Source: Rhodanobacter sp. FDAARGOS 1247
Lineage (GTDB): Bacteria > Pseudomonadota > Gammaproteobacteria > Xanthomonadales > Rhodanobacteraceae
Direction: 5' to 3'
Length of the DNA stretch: 64,000 bases
NCBI RefSeq assembly: GCF_016889805.1
Contig: NZ_CP069535.1
Location: forward strand, 2,852,001 to 2,916,000
Shown here: positions 56,419 to 64,000 of the stretch, one piece after another
Layout of the letters: every line of letters begins with the position of its first letter
Position numbering within the stretch: the first letter of the stretch is position 1
Notes under the pieces: generated by a model
What the model saw: only the letters and a program-made list of their open reading frames with translations
Told to the model about the DNA's origin: nothing
The model's database searches: none
Made by a program: the position numbers and the translations under genes

Positions 56419-57141
56419 CTACCCATGGTGCGCCAGGCATGTTTCCGCGTAGTCATGGGGAACAACTTCATCGGGATTGTTTTCGCTGACAATGCCCTTG
56501 ACTCCGAACGATCTGAGCTTGTTGATGCTCCATGGCCAGAAGACCACTTCTCCGGCGTCCAGTTTTCTTTGTACCTCAGCCGGCGGCTTGTTGATCATGT
56601 CCAGGCTTACCTGGCGCTCATCGTAAAAATCATGGATCTGCCAGACGTCTGCCACCAGTCGCTGTTTGACATCGTCGGCGATCTTTCTGGTCAGAATGTC
56701 ATCAATCGACCACAGTCCGCGGTGCATTACCACGTCAGCGCAATGAAGAAGAACGCGGTGACGACCCATCAGAAACAGGAATGACGCGCAGGCTGATGCG
56801 CACATGTCGCCGGCAACGGGCACGGGATCGTATTCATCGAGCATCCTGACAATATAGATGGCTGAATCCACGTAACCGCCCTCGCCGGACACGATCACGT
56901 ATGGATTGTTTTTGATCTTGCCTCTCAGCTTCGCAACGCTCAAAAACATGGCTGGGTCGATCTTTCCGCGGAGACAAACCACACGCCCATCGGCAACAAC
57001 ATTTACCCCCTGCAATCCGCGGCACGAGGAAAAATCCTTCTGCGCCTCATGCAGCATCTCGCTTTCAGCGACATCCGCCGCTCTGCAGTGACTGGAGGCG
57101 CAAGAAAGAAAGATGAAGAAAACCGGACGCAAAAATTTCAT
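56419..57141 (-). CDS. Periplasmic ClpP-like protein A
   Basis: 240 residues with signal peptide LRPVFFIFLSCASSHCRAAD and strong SD (GGAGG, 8 nt from ATG 57141). The core shows the ClpP/crotonase-like pattern: GEGGYVDSAIYIV (oxyanion Gly pair), CASACASFLFLMG with Ser116 as likely nucleophile, and VVMHRGLW with His140. It fits a COG3904-like periplasmic protease group. Unequal to ClpP itself: no hexamer-binding features. It is paralogous in layout to the protein at 58281 and follows peptide 1, from which it is separated by an IS5 remnant. Confidence 0.75.
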   Translation of the reverse strand: MKFLRPVFFIFLSCASSHCRAADVAESEMLHEAQKDFSSCRGLQGVNVVADGRVVCLRGKIDPAMFLSVAKLRGKIKNNPYVIVSGEGGYVDSAIYIVRMLDEYDPVPVAGDMCASACASFLFLMGRHRVLLHCADVVMHRGLWSIDDILTRKIADDVKQRLVADVWQIHDFYDERQVSLDMINKPPAEVQRKLDAGEVVFWPWSINKLRSFGVKGIVSENNPDEVVPHDYAETCLAHHG

Positions 57142-57239
57142 TGACACAACCTCCAAAAGTGGCGCCAAAGGCTGGAATAGATGATGTCTTCAGCACCGCT
57201 CACATCGCGGATCAACATGTTGATGATTAGAAGGACCGA

Positions 57240-57815
57240 TTACTCATTTGCAGGTACCGGCAAAGCCCGGGGATCTGAATAGGCCATCGTCGAATGGCCT
57301 TCCAAATGACTTGTCGAAAAGTTAGACAAGGCGGACAGGGCAGTATCTGCACCGTGTTTTTGACCAGCCCCATGAAGCGAACCTTCTGAAGGCCGAACTG
57401 ACGTTTTGCGACGCGGAACGGATGCTCAACCTTTGAGCGAACTGCGGCCTTCATGTGCTCCGAATGCCTGACGGCATCCTTGAGTTCGCCTTCGGGCATC
57501 GCGTCCGTGACGCTGCCACGCGCCAGCAGCAAGCCCGCGAAGCAGCGAAGTGGCACGACCTCGTATAACGCCTGCTCCATCGCTGTAACCGAACCAGTTC
57601 TGCACCAAGTGGATGCGCAGCATCGACTTGAGAGCATACGGCCGCCGGCCGTTGCCTGCCTTGGGACAGACCGGCCCGATCACTGCCAGCAACGCCTTCC
57701 ACAGCACCACTTGTTCCATCTCATCCAGGAACTCATGACAGGCACCTCGCGTTTGGACGGCCAGTTGCAACCTAGAGGACGGGACTTGCTCAGACTTTCC
57801 CCAGGCGTGGATTGA
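57240..57815 (-). pseudogene. Degenerate IS5-family transposase
   Basis: Fragments in two frames. The upstream piece (EFLDEMEQVVLWKALLAVIG, PKAGNGRRPYALKSMLRIHL, VQNWFGYSD) is the DUF772 N-terminal part of IS5-type transposases. It continues in another frame as MEQALYEVVPLRCFAGL. An internal deletion then removes most of the DDE domain, and the C-terminal part AVRSKVEHPFRVAKRQFG and VRFMGLVKNTVQ remains. A further shift leads to ALSALSNF. The element lies between peptide 1 and its ClpP-like partner. Ends were not resolved to terminal repeats. Confidence 0.8.
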
Positions 57816-57881
57816 TTAGCCCGCCCACTTTGTCCTATCGATCCGGCCACCGACTCATTGCTTTCACCAAGCTACGCGACA

Positions 57882-57911
57882 CCACTGCCGGACCTGCAGT
57901 TCCGGCAATGG
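57882..57911 (-). terminator. Hairpin downstream of peptide 1
   Basis: CCACTGCCGGA (57882-57892) pairs with TCCGGCAATGG (57901-57911) with one G-T wobble across an 8-nt loop. It lies 14 nt after the peptide 1 stop. It matches the hairpin after peptide 2 (59043-59072), so the hairpin duplicated with the module. It may act as attenuator or mRNA stabiliser. Confidence 0.6.
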
Positions 57912-57925
57912 CACCGCCTAATCGG

Positions 57926-58072
57926 TTACTCGTGCGAGATGTGACATTCCTTCTTCGTCGTGGTCGTGGTCGAACCGTCCTTGTTCGTGGTCGTGGTGGT
58001 GGTGGTGGAGCAACCTGCCTCCGTCTTCCCGCCGTTGACGAGTTCCAGTTCGCTGATGGTCATCTCACGCAT
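57926..58072 (-). CDS. Double-glycine leader peptide 1 with Thr-rich, two-Cys core
   Basis: 48 residues, too short for routine calling. SD AGGAG stands 7 nt before ATG 58072. Leader MREMTISELELVNGG ends in the double glycine cut by C39 exporters. The core (33 residues) is KTEAGC (Cys21), a Ser and seven Thr, the turn-forming NKDGS (30-34), five Thr, KKEC (Cys43) and HISHE. Two Thr strands around a turn, closed by the two Cys, suggest a disulfide-bonded beta-hairpin. Near-twin of the peptide at 59088. I know of no named family. Exporter C39-ABC is downstream in the same locus. Confidence 0.8.
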   Translation of the reverse strand: MREMTISELELVNGGKTEAGCSTTTTTTTNKDGSTTTTTKKECHISHE

Positions 58073-58092
58073 TGTCTCTCTCCTTTTGGATC

Positions 58093-58133
58093 GGTGCATA
58101 CCGTGCACCTGCGGGTCATGATGCACATGCATC
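58093..58133 (-). promoter_or_regulatory. Two palindromes in the leader of peptide 1
   Basis: GGTGCA-TACCG-TGCACC (58093-58109) and GATGCA-CA-TGCATC (58120-58133) lie about 20 and 48 nt before the start of peptide 1. The same pair, with altered spacers or arm ends, precedes peptide 2 (59253-59293). They may be operators or RNA hairpins. Confidence 0.6.
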
Positions 58134-58280
58134 ATTCGGGTCGGACATGCGCCCCAACAATTTCCAGTCCTGGCGCACGTCCCGCATATTTTTCGGAACA
58201 CCCGACGTCGCCAGTTCCGGCGAGCGGGTGGCAACCACCGAAGCACTCGTTCACTTCAGGGCTGCCACTGGCATCGCGAA

Positions 58281-59024
58281 TCACCGAAGCGCGGCGGTGG
58301 AAAATTTCACCTGGTAACCGTTCCTCTTCAGGATTTCCCCGATCCGATCCGGGCTGTAATCGTGGCAATACTTCAGCTTCTTCACGCCGTAGTTCCTCAG
58401 CGACTTCATCGAGGGCACCCACACCCCGGCGGACGTCGAGTAGGAGTACTCGCCGGTCACCGGATCCAGCGTGTAGCTTTCTTTCAGATCAAGGGCGTTG
58501 ACGGCCTTCTCCGAGTCCGCCAACAAGGCGATATCGACGCTGGCGCCTGCATAGAATGCTGATTCGTCGGCATGAAACGCGTCGAGCCAGGCTGCATACT
58601 CGACCACAAGCCCCTCCGGAATGCCCTCGGCCCGCATCGAACGAGCCTCGTCCTCGGCCTTGCCGAGGCCGCCGTGCCACGCAACCACCGAGTCGCACTC
58701 GATATTCAGGCGCTTTCCGGCTATGGCCAGATAGCTTGCGCATGCGGAAATGCATACTCCCTTCACGTCAATCTCGACATCCGGACGTCCCTGGATATCT
58801 CTGGCGATCTTCAAGGCCACGGACGGGTAACCACCGCTGCTGTTGAGCAGCACTCTGGTAAAGCCACCCCTGGCGACCGCCAGATATTGTTCGTACGAAC
58901 CTTTTTCGATATCCCCCTCGAACCGTATGGTCGAGCTGGAGGACCTGGTCCATCCGGCCCATGCGCACTGACTGAACAGCACGCCCGTCATCAGGATCAA
59001 ATGGATAAAGCCATGCTTGTTCAT
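58281..59024 (-). CDS. Periplasmic ClpP-like protein B
   Basis: 247 residues with signal peptide FIHLILMTGVLFSQCAWAGW. ClpP-like core: LLNSSGGYPSVALKIARDI (oxyanion glycines), GVCISACASYLAIAGKRL with Ser93 as likely nucleophile and VVAWHGGL with His117. The order and spacing match protein A, although overall identity is low; the last about 60 residues differ. Follows peptide 2 by 63 bp and precedes peptide 1. Role unknown: maturation, degradation of the peptide, or immunity. Confidence 0.75.
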   Translation of the reverse strand: MNKHGFIHLILMTGVLFSQCAWAGWTRSSSSTIRFEGDIEKGSYEQYLAVARGGFTRVLLNSSGGYPSVALKIARDIQGRPDVEIDVKGVCISACASYLAIAGKRLNIECDSVVAWHGGLGKAEDEARSMRAEGIPEGLVVEYAAWLDAFHADESAFYAGASVDIALLADSEKAVNALDLKESYTLDPVTGEYSYSTSAGVWVPSMKSLRNYGVKKLKYCHDYSPDRIGEILKRNGYQVKFSTAALR

Positions 59025-59042
59025 GAGTCGTCCCGGTCAGAT

Positions 59043-59072
59043 CCATTGCCGGAGCCGCAGCTCCGGCAATGG
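59043..59072 (-). terminator. Hairpin downstream of peptide 2
   Basis: A perfect 13-bp stem CCATTGCCGGAGC (59043-59055) / GCTCCGGCAATGG (59060-59072) with loop CGCA, between peptide 2 and ClpP-like protein B. No T tract follows, so partial termination or 3'-end protection of the abundant peptide mRNA is more likely than full termination. Confidence 0.65.
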
Positions 59073-59087
59073 CGTCAAATCACCCGC

Positions 59088-59234
59088 TTACGAATGCGAA
59101 ATGTGACATTCCTTCGTCTTGGTGGTGGTCGTGGAACCGTCCGGGTTCTTGGTGGTGGTGGTGGTGGTGGAGCAACCTGCCTCGGTCTTGCCGCCGTTCA
59201 CCAGCTCGACTTCCTGGGTCGTAATCTCGCGCAT
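59088..59234 (-). CDS. Double-glycine leader peptide 2 with Thr-rich, two-Cys core
   Basis: 48 residues, SD AAGGAG 7 nt from ATG 59234. Leader MREITTQEVELVNGG (15) is like that of peptide 1. Core: KTEAGC (Cys21), Ser and six Thr, KNPDGS, four Thr, KTKEC (Cys43), HISHS. The turn keeps Asn30, Asp32, Gly33 and Ser34. Cys positions, core length and both ends (KTEAGCS, KECHISH) are identical to peptide 1, while the middle differs only at turn and a few Thr, which argues for selection on shape. First of the duplicated peptide/ClpP modules, 127 bp after the exporter. Confidence 0.8.
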   Translation of the reverse strand: MREITTQEVELVNGGKTEAGCSTTTTTTKNPDGSTTTTKTKECHISHS

Positions 59235-59252
59235 TGCATTTCTCCTTGTTGT

Positions 59253-59293
59253 GGGTGCACACCCTGCACCCTGGGTCACGATGCATGTGCATC
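59253..59293 (-). promoter_or_regulatory. Two palindromes in the leader of peptide 2
   Basis: GGGTGCA-CACCC-TGCACCC (59253-59271) and GATGCA-TG-TGCATC (59280-59293) lie about 18 and 46 nt upstream of the start. Arms are conserved relative to peptide 1 while spacers differ, and the first has an extra base pair. Confidence 0.6.
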
Positions 59294-59360
59294 ACGAATC
59301 CGCATCCGGGGCCGCGAAGCCCGTCGTTCGTCAGCCGTCCCTTTCGGGACACCAACGCGA

Positions 59361-61487
59361 TCAAACCGACCGATCCATGCCCAACTGGATGACCCTTCCC
59401 GCCGCGGCTACCGTCTCCGGCCGGTGCGCGATCACGATCCGGGTGATCCGCAACCGCTGAACCGCCGCGTTGACCAGGCGTTCCCGCTCCAGATCCAGAT
59501 GGCTGGTCGCCTCGTCGAGCACCAACAGCCGCGGTCGCCGATACAGCGCCCGCGCCAGGATCACCCGCTGCTTCTGTCCGCCAGACAGGCTGGAACCCAT
59601 GTCGCCGACGAGGCTCTGGTAAGCCATCGGCATCGCGGCGATATCGTCATGGACGGCGGCGAGCCGCGCGGCGGCTTCGATCCGCATCGGCGTTGCCTCG
59701 GGGTCGAAGAAACTGATGTTGTCCGCGATGCTGCCCGCGAACAGCTGGTCGTCCTGCATCACCGCGCCGATCCAGCGGCGATAGACATCGAGCCCCAGCT
59801 TGCGGATGTCGACACCGCCAAAGCGCACCTCGCCTTCCGTGGGCGCAAGCAGCCCGAGCATGATCTTGGCGAGCGTGCTCTTGCCGCAGCCACTGGGCCC
59901 GACGAAAGCCACGGACTCGCCCGCATCGATGCGCAAGTTGCAATGGCGAACTATCCACGGCTCGCCTTCGGCGTAGCGGAAGCTGACGTTGCACAGCTCG
60001 ATGCTCGCCTCGGGAGCCGGCCCGTCCCATGACGACGACGAATTTTCTTCCGGCGCGGTCAGCGCGATATCCGCCACCCGCTCGGCATGCAGCCGAAGCA
60101 TGCAAAAGTCCACGTACTTGTCGATCAGCCCGGCCGCGCGACTGAGGAACTGGTCGGCGTACGCGATGAAGGCGATCAGCATGCCCGCGGAGAACTCGTT
60201 CTTCAGCGCCAGCGTGGCGGCGATCCAGATCATCGCCACCCGACCCATGCCGAACATCAGCTGGTTGCTGAGGACGAAGGCGATGCCCAGCCGCTGGATG
60301 GCGATGTCGCGGTTGGTCGTGGACACCGTGGCATTGGCGTAGCGCGACAGCCGCTCGTCCTGCTTGCTGGCCAGCTTGATCGGCATCGCGCCACGGATGG
60401 ATTCCAGCAACTCGCTCTGCTGGCGGGCGCCGTAGACGATCTGCTCCTCGCTGGCGCGCCGCAACGGACCGAAGAAGCCCCAGCGGACCAGCCCATAGAC
60501 AAGGAACAGGCCGGCCACCAGCGCAGTGAGCCCGATGCTGTAGAACGCCATCACCACCAGGGTCACCAGTGACATCAGGCCGTCCAGCAGGGACCCGATG
60601 AACTGTGTGGTCAGGGTGCGCTGGATGGTCTGGATCGAGCCGAAGCGGGACACCACGTCACCGACATGCCGCTTCTCGAACCAGTCCAGCGGCAGCCGCA
60701 TCAGGTGGGCGAACAGGTTGCTGGCCCATTGCACGTTGAGCGTGGCGCCCAGCCAGGTGACCGCCCATGAACGCGCCGCCGTGACCAGCGCCGAAAAGAT
60801 CGCGATGCCGATGAAGCCCAGGCCCAGCAAGGTCAGCAGGTCGCGATCGGCCGATACCAGGACCTGATCCATCACCCATTGCAGATAGAACGGCGCAGCC
60901 AGCGCGAACACTTCCAGCGCCAGGGCCAGCATCAGGATCTGTGCCAGCGCGGGAACGAGTCCGCGCACCCGGCCGGTCAGCGCGCGCATGGATACCGCCT
61001 GGCGTTCGCGCACCGGAGCGAAGTCGGCGGCGGGACTCAGCTCGAGCGCGACGCCGGTGAAATGGTCGGACGCCTCCTTCATGCCGAGTTTGCGCAGGCC
61101 ACGCGCCGGGTCGTGGATGACGATGCCACGCTTGCCCACGCTCTTCAGCACTACGAAGTGGTTGAGATCCCAGTGCAGCACGCAAGGCGTCCTGAGCCGG
61201 GAGAGGTCGCCCATGTCCAGTTTCAACGGGCGACAGGCAAGGCCCAGTTGCCCGGCCATCGTCATCACGCGGGCCAGCGTGGCGCCCTTGAGCGAACTGG
61301 AGAAACGCCGACGCAGACCGGCCAGATCCACGTCGTGGCCATGATGATTGGCGATCATGGCCAGGCAGGCCAGGCCGCATTCGGCAGCCTCGGTCTGCAG
61401 GACCACCGGCAGGTGACGCGACCAGCCGAACTGCAGCGGAAGGCTCGCGGCGGCCGCCACGGGAACGGAACGGTTGCCGTCAGCCAT
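59361..61487 (-). CDS. Peptidase-containing ABC transporter (C39 type)
   Basis: 708 residues from ATG 61487 (GGAAGAG 9 nt upstream). The N-terminal C39 peptidase has Gln31 and Cys37 (LQTEAAECGLAC), His110 (DLNHFVVLKS) and Asp126 (IHDPARG), so it should be active on double-glycine leaders. Six membrane helices follow (about 160-440) and an ABC ATPase with Walker A GPSGCGKST, signature LSGGQKQR and Walker B LLVLDEATSHLD. It cuts and exports peptides across the inner membrane; HlyD (63075) is its adaptor. An ATG at 61514 is an alternative start. Confidence 0.93.
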   Translation of the reverse strand: MADGNRSVPVAAAASLPLQFGWSRHLPVVLQTEAAECGLACLAMIANHHGHDVDLAGLRRRFSSSLKGATLARVMTMAGQLGLACRPLKLDMGDLSRLRTPCVLHWDLNHFVVLKSVGKRGIVIHDPARGLRKLGMKEASDHFTGVALELSPAADFAPVRERQAVSMRALTGRVRGLVPALAQILMLALALEVFALAAPFYLQWVMDQVLVSADRDLLTLLGLGFIGIAIFSALVTAARSWAVTWLGATLNVQWASNLFAHLMRLPLDWFEKRHVGDVVSRFGSIQTIQRTLTTQFIGSLLDGLMSLVTLVVMAFYSIGLTALVAGLFLVYGLVRWGFFGPLRRASEEQIVYGARQQSELLESIRGAMPIKLASKQDERLSRYANATVSTTNRDIAIQRLGIAFVLSNQLMFGMGRVAMIWIAATLALKNEFSAGMLIAFIAYADQFLSRAAGLIDKYVDFCMLRLHAERVADIALTAPEENSSSSWDGPAPEASIELCNVSFRYAEGEPWIVRHCNLRIDAGESVAFVGPSGCGKSTLAKIMLGLLAPTEGEVRFGGVDIRKLGLDVYRRWIGAVMQDDQLFAGSIADNISFFDPEATPMRIEAAARLAAVHDDIAAMPMAYQSLVGDMGSSLSGGQKQRVILARALYRRPRLLVLDEATSHLDLERERLVNAAVQRLRITRIVIAHRPETVAAAGRVIQLGMDRSV

Positions 61488-61677
61488 GCGCAACTGCTCT
61501 TCCGCAAGCCACATGACCGACAGAAGGCAGGAGGCCCATGGCCATCATGCTGGTGTCGCCTGAAGTCCTCAGCACGGTCTCGACTCCATGCATTCTGCGA
61601 CCCGTCCTGCGAAATCATCAGACGCCCACCGGGTCGCTCGACAGCGAGCCACCGCCGCACAACGAACCGGTGCGGTA

Positions 61678-62253
61678 TCAGCCGTGGCGAAACCCATAGA
61701 ACTCTCCCATAACGACCGCGCGGCGCGGTACTTTGCAGAGCAGCAGAAAGATGATGCACACGTCACCGCTCGCGGCGGTTCCATTCAATATGGACAACGA
61801 CGAAAGCATGGGCAGGTATGGGGCGGGCACCATCCAGGCCAGGGGAAATGGCAGCAGCGTCAGCACCAGCATCGGCATGAATGCCACCATCACCGCTTTT
61901 GGCCGGCTCAATTCGCCCAGATAGGCCACATAGGGAAGATGCGTTTTCGGATCAAATCCCATGTATGAGCGTTCGCCACGACCGGAACCGGGCAATGCCA
62001 GCAGGTGAATGAACTCATGCACGATGACGATGCCGACCAGAGTCCCGATGAAGATGCCGGGAGGTTGGTCAAAGACGCCAAGAGCCCAGCTGTGCGGCCA
62101 CAGCAGCGACCAGGCTAGGTAAAGGCATGGCCCGACCATGAGCAGTCCGAGCAGTGTTGCCACGACGTGCAGTCGCCCATAACTCTCGATCAGCCGATTC
62201 GCGCCTGACAGATCGCAGCCAACCTGAGGCGGAAAACCATACTTGAACTTCAT
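61678..62253 (-). CDS. DUF3267-like membrane metalloprotease
   Basis: 191 residues from ATG 62253; an in-frame ATG at 62319 would add 22 residues, and neither has a good SD. Hydrophobic segments at about 35-60 and 75-100. The second ends in IVIVHEFIHLLAL, an HExxH zinc site (His-Glu-Phe-Ile-His), and two more follow. Matches DUF3267-type putative zincin peptidases. In this locus it may process a peptide, the exporter or a signal. Substrate unknown. Confidence 0.72.
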   Translation of the reverse strand: MKFKYGFPPQVGCDLSGANRLIESYGRLHVVATLLGLLMVGPCLYLAWSLLWPHSWALGVFDQPPGIFIGTLVGIVIVHEFIHLLALPGSGRGERSYMGFDPKTHLPYVAYLGELSRPKAVMVAFMPMLVLTLLPFPLAWMVPAPYLPMLSSLSILNGTAASGDVCIIFLLLCKVPRRAVVMGEFYGFRHG

Positions 62254-62497
62254 GCTGTCAGCCCGCAAGGATTCATTGAAACCGCCCCATGAATTGAATG
62301 CATGTGGTGGCAACGTCATTCAATCATTGAATGGCACGCAGTGTGTCGCCCGATTCCAGCCGCGGCTGAATCTCCGCCCGCTCTTACAGCGTGAGTTCGT
62401 TGTACGTCCTCATCGCAACAACCCATGTCAGATTTGGCATGGTGTTGCACGTGGAGTTTGAGACGGCCCAGCCAAGTAAATCGTCCGCCTCCTTTTA

Positions 62498-62671
62498 TCA
62501 AAGGCTCGGGCGACCCTGCCTCGACTCGATTTTTCGCCAGATCCACACCGTGATGCCCATGAACAGGGCATTTAGGAGCAGCCAATATTCGCCAGCCATG
62601 ACTCTGCAGATCGGCGGAAATATGAAAGCGCCGGACACAAAGATGAACAGTGGGAGGATTGTAGTTTTCAC
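62498..62671 (-). CDS. Small membrane protein
   Basis: 57 residues starting at GTG 62671 with an excellent SD (AAGGAG, 6 nt). Two hydrophobic segments: TTILPLFIFVSGAFIFPPI and YWLLLNALFMGITVWIW, with a short Arg/Lys-rich end. No family recognised. Small two-segment proteins next to bacteriocin genes are often immunity proteins; this is inference from position between the bacteriocin-like peptide and the metalloprotease gene. Confidence 0.65.
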   Translation of the reverse strand: MKTTILPLFIFVSGAFIFPPICRVMAGEYWLLLNALFMGITVWIWRKIESRQGRPSL

Positions 62672-62728
62672 GAAAATCTCCTTGCAAATTGAGGATCCCC
62701 CACCTCACGATGAGGAATCAAAATCGGA

Positions 62729-62962
62729 TCAACCCAAGGGAGTCACACCAATACCGAAGTCCATGTATCCGATATTGCCGTTGGCATAGCCCCCACTGAT
62801 CGAGTTGGCCGCGTCGCCACCGACGATGCACCCCGCAGCTGCTCCCCACGGACCAAGTTCCGAAAGCATCGCTCCGCCAATGGCGCAACCGATGGTCTCC
62901 GAGCTAACCATTTGCAGACCACCGGAAACGTTGTGAATTTCCTTCGCAATCAAGTCTTTCAT
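62729..62962 (-). CDS. Bacteriocin-like double-glycine peptide
   Basis: 77 residues, ATG 62962 with GGAAG upstream. Leader MKDLIAKEIHNVSGG (15) ends in Gly-Gly. Core of 62 residues, Gly/Ala-rich and hydrophobic: ETIGCAIGGAML, GPWGAAAGCIVGGDAANS (Cys26 and Cys45 in the precursor), then SGGYANGNIGYMDFGIG. GxxxG-like spacing fits two-peptide class II bacteriocins, although it is unlike the Thr-rich peptides of the same locus. It lies between HlyD and the exporter. Confidence 0.8.
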   Translation of the reverse strand: MKDLIAKEIHNVSGGLQMVSSETIGCAIGGAMLSELGPWGAAAGCIVGGDAANSISGGYANGNIGYMDFGIGVTPLG

Positions 62963-63074
62963 ATCATTCTTCCTGTTGATGGCAGTAGACCCTGCCGGTG
63001 TTAGTCGTCGATCTGACAACCAAATCTTGAGTCTCGTTTTCAATATCCTTGCCCAACCATTTTGTCAGGCGCGC

Positions 63075-64000
63075 TCAACCGCGCGACTCGTCTTCTCCCA
63101 GTTGATGGGCCATGCCGTACAGTGGCTCGAACACCCACTCGATCAGGCGACGACGTTCCATCAGCACGTCGGCCTCCAGAGCCATTCCGGGCTTGACCGG
63201 CTCGGGCCGCCCGTAAGCCATCACCTGCTGGCTGTCCAGCTTCACTTCGATGCGATACAGCGGCTCGCGTGGCTGCTGCCCGATCAGGGCATTGATCTCC
63301 GCCACGCCCAGAGCGCTGCGCGAGATGTCGCTGACCCTGCCGTACTGCTGGCCGAACTTCTGGTAGGGGAACGCCTGGTAGCGCAAGACCACCCGGCTGC
63401 CCGGTTCGATGAAGCCGATGGCCCGGCTCGGCACCAGCAACTGCGCCTGCAGCGAGGAGCCCGCCGGAAGGATGGAAAGCAGCGGCTGGCCGGCGGCGAC
63501 CATCTGCCCCTCCTTCAACAGCACGGTGGAAACCACGCCATCGCGCGGCGCGCGCAACACCACCGCCCGCTGCATTTCGTTTTGCGCCGTCGACTGGGCC
63601 AGGGCGGCGAGTTGTCGTTCGGTTTCGTTGCGCTTGCCTGCCTCGTCCAGCGGCAGGCGCGCCAGCTGCTGTTGTGCCTCGTCGAACTGCTGGCGGGCAT
63701 CGAGTTGCTGGCGCAGCAGCGTCTTGTATTGCGCCTGTGCGTTCAGCACCGCCGCTTCCTGCTGCTGGATCTGCACCGCAGATACGAAGCCCCGTGCGGC
63801 CAGCGGCTTGATCTTCACCAGCATCTGCCGGTTGCTGGTCACCTGTTGCTGCTGGATCGCCAGCTGCCCCGCGATCTGGGCCAGCTGGCCCTGCAACAGG
63901 GCCATCCGCGACTGCAGGGCGTCGCCCTGCTGCTCGCCCAGTTGCTGCTGATTGACCAGATCGGCCTGCAGGCGCGCGCGCTGGATCTCCAGCTGCCTGC
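63075..64000 (-). CDS. HlyD-family membrane fusion protein (partial)
   Basis: Cut by the window edge; the N-terminal part lies beyond 64000. At least 308 residues are visible. Coiled-coil region rich in Gln/Leu (QLAQIAGQLAIQQQQ, AGKRNETERQLAALAQST), then the lipoyl/barrel part with VVLRAPRDGVVSTVLLKEGQMVAAGQPLLSI and VPSRAIGFIEPGSRVVLRY. Links a C39 ABC exporter to an outer-membrane channel, as in CvaA/HlyD. The outer-membrane protein itself is not in the window. Confidence 0.93.
   Translation of the reverse strand, partial: RQLEIQRARLQADLVNQQQLGEQQGDALQSRMALLQGQLAQIAGQLAIQQQQVTSNRQMLVKIKPLAARGFVSAVQIQQQEAAVLNAQAQYKTLLRQQLDARQQFDEAQQQLARLPLDEAGKRNETERQLAALAQSTAQNEMQRAVVLRAPRDGVVSTVLLKEGQMVAAGQPLLSILPAGSSLQAQLLVPSRAIGFIEPGSRVVLRYQAFPYQKFGQQYGRVSDISRSALGVAEINALIGQQPREPLYRIEVKLDSQQVMAYGRPEPVKPGMALEADVLMERRRLIEWVFEPLYGMAHQLGEDESRG

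What the first reader, a model, noticed from the sequence alone, without database searches (positions are those of the whole stretch)
56419..64000. Peptide export locus with a duplicated module: Thr-rich GG peptide plus ClpP-like protein
Seen: on the minus strand HlyD, a bacteriocin-like GG peptide, a 57-residue membrane protein, a DUF3267 HExxH protein, a C39-ABC exporter, then peptide 2/ClpP-like B and peptide 1/ClpP-like A. Known: C39 exporters cut after Gly-Gly. Inference: all three peptides are exported, and the ClpP-like proteins process, clear or give immunity to the Thr-rich peptides. The pairing of a Cys-Thr peptide with a periplasmic ClpP-like protein is not one I know.
Basis: partly seen in the sequence, partly recalled or inferred. 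Interest (0 to 1): 0.92.

Follow-up and report, generated by a model that had tools for sequence, protein, structure and literature searches.

The report
Exported threonine hairpin peptides with protease partner
A soil bacterium and some plant-associated relatives carry a gene for a tiny threonine-rich, hairpin-shaped export peptide, and in most genomes examined it sits right before a gene for a ClpP-like protease sent to the cell envelope, which suggests a new kind of exported peptide with a protease as its guard or processor.

Summary
The window (Rhodanobacter, by kinship to R. spathiphylli) carries a C39-ABC/HlyD peptide exporter and two 48-residue GG-leader peptides. Only the peptide cassette (about 252 bp, 77.8% identical) is duplicated. 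The two ClpP-like proteins are not copies (28% identity), and ClpP-A is separated from its peptide by an IS5 remnant.

The peptide/ClpP-B pairing is conserved. It stands in 8 of 10 genomes with a strong ClpP-B match, in two families and at different sites, and in 0 of 14 genomes with weak matches. Of the two exceptions, R. spathiphylli keeps ClpP-B but has lost the peptide, and the other has a broken ClpP-B.

Best reading: a PCAT-exported hairpin peptide, probably microcin-like, degraded or handled by its periplasmic ClpP-fold protease. Export, toxicity and proteolysis are inferred, not shown.

The parts
63075..63998 (-). HlyD-type membrane fusion protein (3' part; start lies beyond the window)
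   Evidence: PF13437 E 9.1e-17; TIGR01843 E 8.9e-36, below cut-off; full ORF 451 aa in L016
62729..62962 (-). GG-leader, Gly-rich bacteriocin-like peptide (leader MKDLIAKEIHNVSGG)
   Evidence: ORF (start MKDLIAK read inside the longer ORF 62729-63043); weak TIGR03949 match, E 0.0012, below cut-off
62498..62671 (-). 57-aa hydrophobic protein, candidate immunity protein of the Gly-rich peptide (inference)
   Evidence: ORF; no family above cut-off
61678..62319 (-). DUF3267 putative zincin peptidase, HEFIH motif
   Evidence: PF11667 64 bits, cut-off 27.1
59361..61514 (-). C39 peptidase-containing ABC exporter (PCAT)
   Evidence: PF03412 2.3e-34, PF00664 2.8e-31, PF00005 1.3e-31
59088..59234 (-). 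peptide p1, 48 aa: GG leader plus 33-aa Thr-rich core with two Cys and central NPDG
   Evidence: AlphaFold helix 6-13, strands 17-29 and 35-47
59025..59087 (-). 63-bp intergenic stretch with a 13-bp-stem hairpin between peptide and ClpP-B, terminator-like
   Evidence: a hairpin follows the peptide gene in 9 of 9 copies folded
58281..59024 (-). ClpP-like B, 247 aa, signal peptide (AWA-GW, by eye), ClpP fold, Ser93/His117
57926..58072 (-). peptide p2, 48 aa, diverged copy of p1 (81% identical)
57882..58134 (-). repeat unit 2 (5' inverted repeat, peptide p2, terminator-like hairpin); unit 1 is 59043-59294
   Evidence: blastn 77.8% over 257 columns
57426..57770 (-). IS5-family transposase remnant
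   Evidence: NF033581 E 5.9e-11 and DUF772 E 2.6e-4, both below cut-off
56419..57141 (-). ClpP-like A, 240 aa, signal-peptide-like start, Ser116/His140 (own numbering, by alignment); 76% identical to one other Rhodanobacter protein

Best explanation
The locus is a peptide-export island. A 48-residue precursor with a double-glycine leader is cut and exported by the C39-ABC/HlyD pair. The released 33-residue core folds in the oxidising periplasm or outside into a two-stranded beta-hairpin: an N-x-D-G turn at the tip, a Thr ladder, and the two Cys closing the open end as a direct cross-strand disulfide. The gene directly downstream, behind a terminator-like hairpin that should let the peptide be made in excess, encodes a Sec-exported ClpP-fold serine protease (ClpP-B). 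The peptide is most likely a microcin-like antibacterial or signalling peptide, and ClpP-B is its dedicated periplasmic protease, giving immunity by degrading peptide that stays in or re-enters the producer's periplasm. Shown: gene content, conserved pairing, equal arm lengths, ClpP fold (predicted model), invariant Ser/His. Inferred: export by this exporter, the disulfide, proteolysis of the peptide, antibacterial effect, immunity.
Against: No activity, export or cleavage was measured. Only one intact ClpP-B without peptide is known, so the asymmetry is thin. For 5 of 9 metagenome ClpP-B clusters no peptide cluster of equal contig length was found, and the genomic neighbours of most database peptides (Massilia, named Xanthomonas) were not seen. 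The usual immunity protein of class II microcins is an inner-membrane protein (PMC13101503, passage). The mature core is shorter than usual microcins (recalled). The two window peptides share one adjacent ClpP-B, so one-to-one pairing is not strict. G1149 has the pair without an exporter in the 19 kb fetched, and its peptide lacks Cys. The third catalytic residue was not identified. The peptide model is moderate (mean pLDDT 76.2, pTM 0.38).
Confidence: 0.42

Rival explanations
1. ClpP-B is a maturation or quality-control protease: it trims or activates the hairpin, or clears misfolded or reduced peptide, and the peptide is a signal or surface-binding factor rather than a toxin.
For: Same pairing data. 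ClpP-B lies directly downstream of the peptide in 8 of 10 loci. Thr-rich, weakly charged strands look unlike cationic membrane-active peptides. GG peptides with other roles exist (biofilm, Synechococcus; PMC4997328, abstract start in the search listing).
Against: R. spathiphylli keeps ClpP-B without the peptide; a maturation enzyme without substrate should decay, though the loss may be recent.
Confidence: 0.27
2. ClpP-B no longer cuts; it is a binding or chaperone-type immunity protein that kept the ClpP fold.
For: No conserved Asp was found for the third catalytic place (D164 and D170 are Asn in G854). Conservation outside the active site is also high, such as W202 (invariant in 11 of 11; at least 90% in 25).
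Against: Ser93, His117 and Gly64-Gly65 (oxyanion strand of ClpP, recalled) are invariant in 25 of 25 sequences.
Confidence: 0.13
3. The Thr ladder is a binding face (ice, polysaccharide or cell-wall glycan) and the peptide is an exported structural or cryoprotective element; ClpP-B is turnover machinery.
For: The face away from the Cys is nearly pure Thr/Ser (87% T/S; mean entropy 0.56 bit) against 70% and 1.31 bit on the Cys face. Regular TxT arrays resemble ice-binding surfaces (recalled).
Against: A single hairpin is very small for ice binding; exporter loci also carry bacteriocin-like cargo.
Confidence: 0.08
4. Hitch-hiking: peptide and ClpP-B travel together only because both sit in a cargo island and have no functional link.
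For: The exporter site varies in content between Rhodanobacter strains (L011, L015), and C39 N-terminal fragments show rearrangement.
Against: The pair stays adjacent and in the same order where the rest differs: other family, other site, and even without an exporter nearby (G1149).
Confidence: 0.1

Closest known systems
Class II microcins (colicin V type) with PCAT/MFP type I secretion
   Same: GG leader, C39-ABC plus HlyD-type adaptor, a conserved neighbour gene
   Different: 33-residue Thr hairpin core instead of a longer domain (recalled); the conserved neighbour is a periplasmic ClpP-fold protein, whereas the canonical immunity protein is an inner-membrane protein (PMC13101503, passages)
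Vibrio cholerae microcin with 'proteolytic immunity' (Kim et al. 2024; title only, seen in reference lists; paper not held)
   Same: by its title a precedent for protease-based immunity to a microcin
   Different: its protease could not be compared here; whether it is ClpP-like is unknown to me
ClpP serine protease
   Same: ClpP fold, Ser/His positions, Gly-Gly strand
   Different: signal peptide; no cytosolic unfoldase expected in the periplasm; Cys91 and Cys95 invariant in 25 of 25, Cys110 in 11 of 11
Caulobacter glycine-zipper two-protein bacteriocin (PMC5380434; title and abstract start in the listing)
   Same: a bacteriocin with type I secretion outside enterobacteria
   Different: glycine-zipper proteins, not Thr hairpins; closer to the window's other GG peptide
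Disulfide-closed beta-hairpin antimicrobial peptides such as thanatin or protegrin (recalled, no call)
   Same: predicted disulfide hairpin
   Different: those are cationic and animal-made; this core is Thr-rich

Membership tests
Class II microcin | double-glycine leader on a small precursor | tested here: met
   Gly14-Gly15 invariant in 29 of 29 aligned peptides
Class II microcin | C39-ABC exporter and membrane fusion protein near the gene | tested here: met
   window; 9 of 10 strong ClpP-B loci; not in the 19 kb of G1149
Class II microcin | match to a curated bacteriocin model above its cut-off | tested here: not met
   best for p1: plantaricin C 19.4 bits, cut-off 29; CTB 17.7, cut-off 32; no Pfam family for p1 or p2. 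No dedicated microcin model was run
Class II microcin | antibacterial activity | not testable with these tools
   needs an assay
Class II microcin | adjacent small inner-membrane immunity protein | tested here: inconclusive
   the conserved neighbour is ClpP-B; very small membrane ORFs were not searched for systematically
ClpP-fold serine protease | ClpP fold | tested here: met
ClpP-fold serine protease | nucleophile Ser and catalytic His | tested here: met
   S93 and H117 invariant in 25 of 25; assigned by alignment, geometry not measured
ClpP-fold serine protease | third catalytic residue (Asp) | tested here: inconclusive
   D164 and D170 are Asn in G854; E154 invariant in the 11 of A6
ClpP proper (cytosolic Clp protease subunit) | cytosolic; curated ClpP model above cut-off | tested here: not met
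   N-terminal signal peptide by eye; no Pfam hit; only NF045542 at 21.3 bits, cut-off 120
ClpP proper (cytosolic Clp protease subunit) | tetradecamer working with an AAA+ unfoldase | not testable with these tools
   monomer model only
C39 peptidase-containing ABC transporter | C39, membrane and ATPase domains in one chain | tested here: met
   PF03412, PF00664, PF00005 all above cut-off

The most novel reading that the evidence does not exclude
A ClpP-type protease has been moved into the periplasm, freed of ATP-driven unfolding, and turned into the dedicated immunity (or processing) enzyme of one exported family of disulfide-clasped Thr-ladder beta-hairpins. More widely, each cargo peptide of these exporter islands may have its own protease-fold guard (ClpP-like, DUF3267 zincin, rhomboid, possibly retropepsin-like), so that proteolytic immunity is a general principle of PCAT peptide islands in this order.
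Probability: 0.3. Interest if true: 0.88.

Novelty: new variant of a known kind. Interest (0 to 1): 0.72.

Why it matters
It gives a ready test of protease-based immunity in Gram-negative peptide export: two small genes, one exporter, clear predictions. The peptides examined match no Pfam or NCBIfam model at its cut-off (seven peptides scanned in Pfam, two of them in NCBIfam), follow a simple geometric rule that makes them easy to find, and reach several genera, including plant-associated Xanthomonas. If the ClpP-fold partner is the guard, it would be a new job for one of the best-known protease folds.

Tried and rejected
Weak ClpP-B relatives: 14 of the 18 genomes have only weak matches (E 1e-5 to 1e-16). 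Loci of all 14 were scanned (G641, G715, G747, G759, G824, G716, G720, G738 and G089 with wider flanks, as far as the contigs allow; G781, G710, G694, G632 and G062 with 1.5 kb or less; a second place in G759 was not scanned). None had a Thr-turn peptide or HlyD; the only exporter matches were two ATPase-like ones in L043. These are general ClpP-like proteins. The scan found the peptide in its positive controls L036 and L056.

Seven of the 13 peptide-profile hits (E 1.6e-5 to 9.8e-4) cover only the leader or a Thr run and were dropped. So were the two other-genus hits (E 0.006-0.007).

The named-genome scan gave only R. spathiphylli and one 28% match in a Pseudaestuariivita MAG (L012), which has no peptide or exporter in its 5.7 kb.

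A duplicated peptide+ClpP module was rejected. A low-complexity DNA artefact was rejected: mixed Thr codons and many synonymous changes. Phage or plasmid carriage: no close relative in viral contigs (2 weak) or plasmids (2 Pantoea records, 38% identity over 39% of the query).

Fold search of the peptide gave nothing significant (best E 1.0), as expected for a lone hairpin. Equal arms: exception P0025 (8/9); P0036, P0038 and P0040 lack the two-Cys pattern. P0037-P0040 had E 0.14-0.55; P0037 is supported by its contig length, P0039 (the 7/7 case) is doubtful. Counts for P0012 and P0014 were wrong because gapped rows were read; one search corrects them.

Print searches: searches showed no paper on this peptide/ClpP pair in their listings. 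The library is open-licence PMC only, listings were capped, and supplements could not be read (among them the microcin candidate table of PMC13174018, of which I saw passages only).
Full report
What is there. On the minus strand lie HlyD, a Gly-rich GG peptide, a 57-aa hydrophobic protein, a DUF3267 zincin, a C39-ABC exporter, peptide p1, ClpP-B, peptide p2, an IS5 remnant and ClpP-A. The HlyD gene continues past the window.

The duplication. blastn finds one long repeat, 59043-59294 against 57882-58134, 77.8% identical. It holds a short 5' inverted repeat, the peptide gene and a terminator-like hairpin, and ends before ClpP-B begins. ClpP-A and ClpP-B are 28% identical. ClpP-A has one close relative in the genus (76%; G186; 2 of 45 genomes incl. 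our own), in a locus with another GG peptide and a 460-aa protein with a weak retropepsin match below cut-off. So the peptide is duplicated, not the module.

The pairing elsewhere. Ten distinct genomes have E <= 1e-20: G000, G190, G071, G854, G1108, G1073, G1039, G1004, G1149, G1013. In eight the Thr peptide lies directly upstream of ClpP-B: G000; G071 in another genus, as HlyD - exporter - peptide - ClpP-B; G854, as HlyD - peptide - ClpP-B - exporter; G1108, G1073, G1039, G1004; and G1149, whose peptide lacks Cys and whose 19 kb show no exporter. The two without: G190, where similarity to our locus resumes in the last codons of the peptide gene, so I infer a deletion that left ClpP-B intact; and G1013, where ClpP-B itself is broken (4 stops). 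As a contrast, the 14 genomes with only weak matches show no such peptide near the match. The reverse search with a peptide profile, 395 genomes of the same family with the same tallies, gives six strong hits, E 5.5e-24 to 1.3e-11, all in genomes with ClpP-B adjacent. In 45 Rhodanobacter genomes only our own has the peptide. The hypergeometric value 1.4e-12 ignores kinship; the six genomes fall in three genera.

Metagenomes. Among the nine ClpP-B clusters other than our own, four have the same longest-contig length as a peptide cluster: 8455, 2753, 2321 and 6603; five have none. I infer the same contigs; I did not see them. P0015 and P0021 share contig length 9678, which hints at tandem peptides elsewhere too.

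The peptide. Thirty proteins at E <= 1 (26 at E < 0.01) match the eight-sequence profile; named ones are from Xanthomonas oryzae, X. vasicola, X. graminis and Massilia sp. The core reads C-(Thr-rich arm)-N-x-D-G-(Thr-rich arm)-C. Of 37 unique peptides 34 have this two-Cys pattern, and in 33 of these the two arms are equal: 28 at 9/9, 4 at 11/11, 1 at 7/7; the exception is P0025 at 8/9. Arms grow by two on both sides at once, which is what a hairpin with a fixed turn and paired Cys requires: in a type I turn with G1 bulge (recalled from ubiquitin), residue 30 pairs with 34 and so 21 pairs with 43, the two Cys. The face away from the Cys is the conserved one: mean entropy 0.56 against 1.31 bit, 87% against 70% Thr/Ser. 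AlphaFold gives leader helix 6-13 and strands 17-29 and 35-47, with pLDDT 87 over residues 21-40 (overall 76.2, pTM 0.38). Thr codons are mixed and many changes are synonymous, so selection acts on the protein.

Regulation. In 9 of 9 peptide copies folded, a stable hairpin follows the peptide gene, in several with a T run, before ClpP. A small inverted repeat around GCA(G/C)GGT(N)TGC lies just before the ribosome-binding site in 7 of 9 copies.

Mechanism. A C39 exporter with GG peptides supports export of the core into or across the envelope. A Sec-exported protease next to the gene would meet the peptide only in the periplasm. With the peptide profile the peptide was never seen without ClpP-B in whole genomes (7 of 7), while ClpP-B survives once intact without the peptide; that is the pattern of toxin and immunity gene, but on one case. 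I therefore prefer proteolytic immunity or clearance (0.42), then maturation/turnover of a non-toxic peptide (0.27).

A wider pattern. Other GG peptides in these islands also come with protease-fold proteins: DUF3267 in our window, rhomboid proteins just before the exporter in G1108 and in the peptide region of G1004 (proteins with a like N-terminus in G1073 and G1013), and perhaps a retropepsin-like protein in G186 (below cut-off). This may be chance in a small sample, but it is worth testing.

Print. The listings of nine searches showed no paper with this pair. The nearest idea is a 2024 paper whose title speaks of proteolytic immunity to a Vibrio cholerae microcin; I saw the title only.

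Noticed in passing
window 59250-59275 and 58090-58112; L036, L052-L055 upstream of the peptide: A short inverted repeat with loop around GCA(G/C)GGTNTGC just before the ribosome-binding site of 7 of 9 Thr-peptide genes; possible regulatory hairpin or operator.
   Followed up: partly
L036 9086-8865, L052 9217-9059, L055 8545-8724: Fragments of a C39 N-terminus beside the peptide/ClpP pair in three Xanthomonadaceae loci: signs of rearrangement or exchange of exporters in the island.
   Followed up: no
L052 7507-8550, L055 7518-8561 (rhomboid); L015 9721-11103 (retropepsin-like, below cut-off); window 61678-62319 (DUF3267): Exporter islands carry different protease-fold proteins near GG peptides.
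   Followed up: partly
L054 5648-6703 and 6766-7026: An MvdD-type ATP-grasp protein (PF21068, 48 bits) with a GG-leader precursor in the same exporter island, a likely graspetide pair.
   Followed up: no
L015 11770-13965: The C39-ABC gene of G186 is split into two abutting ORFs by a stop while one tblastn match spans both; possibly inactive.
   Followed up: no
L011 5704-6130: R. spathiphylli has at the same chromosomal site two other GG-type peptides (MQTLSFEDIEKVSGG.., MREITLEEIESVSGA..) beside the exporter and a DUF3267 remnant: cargo of the island is swapped between strains.
   Followed up: partly
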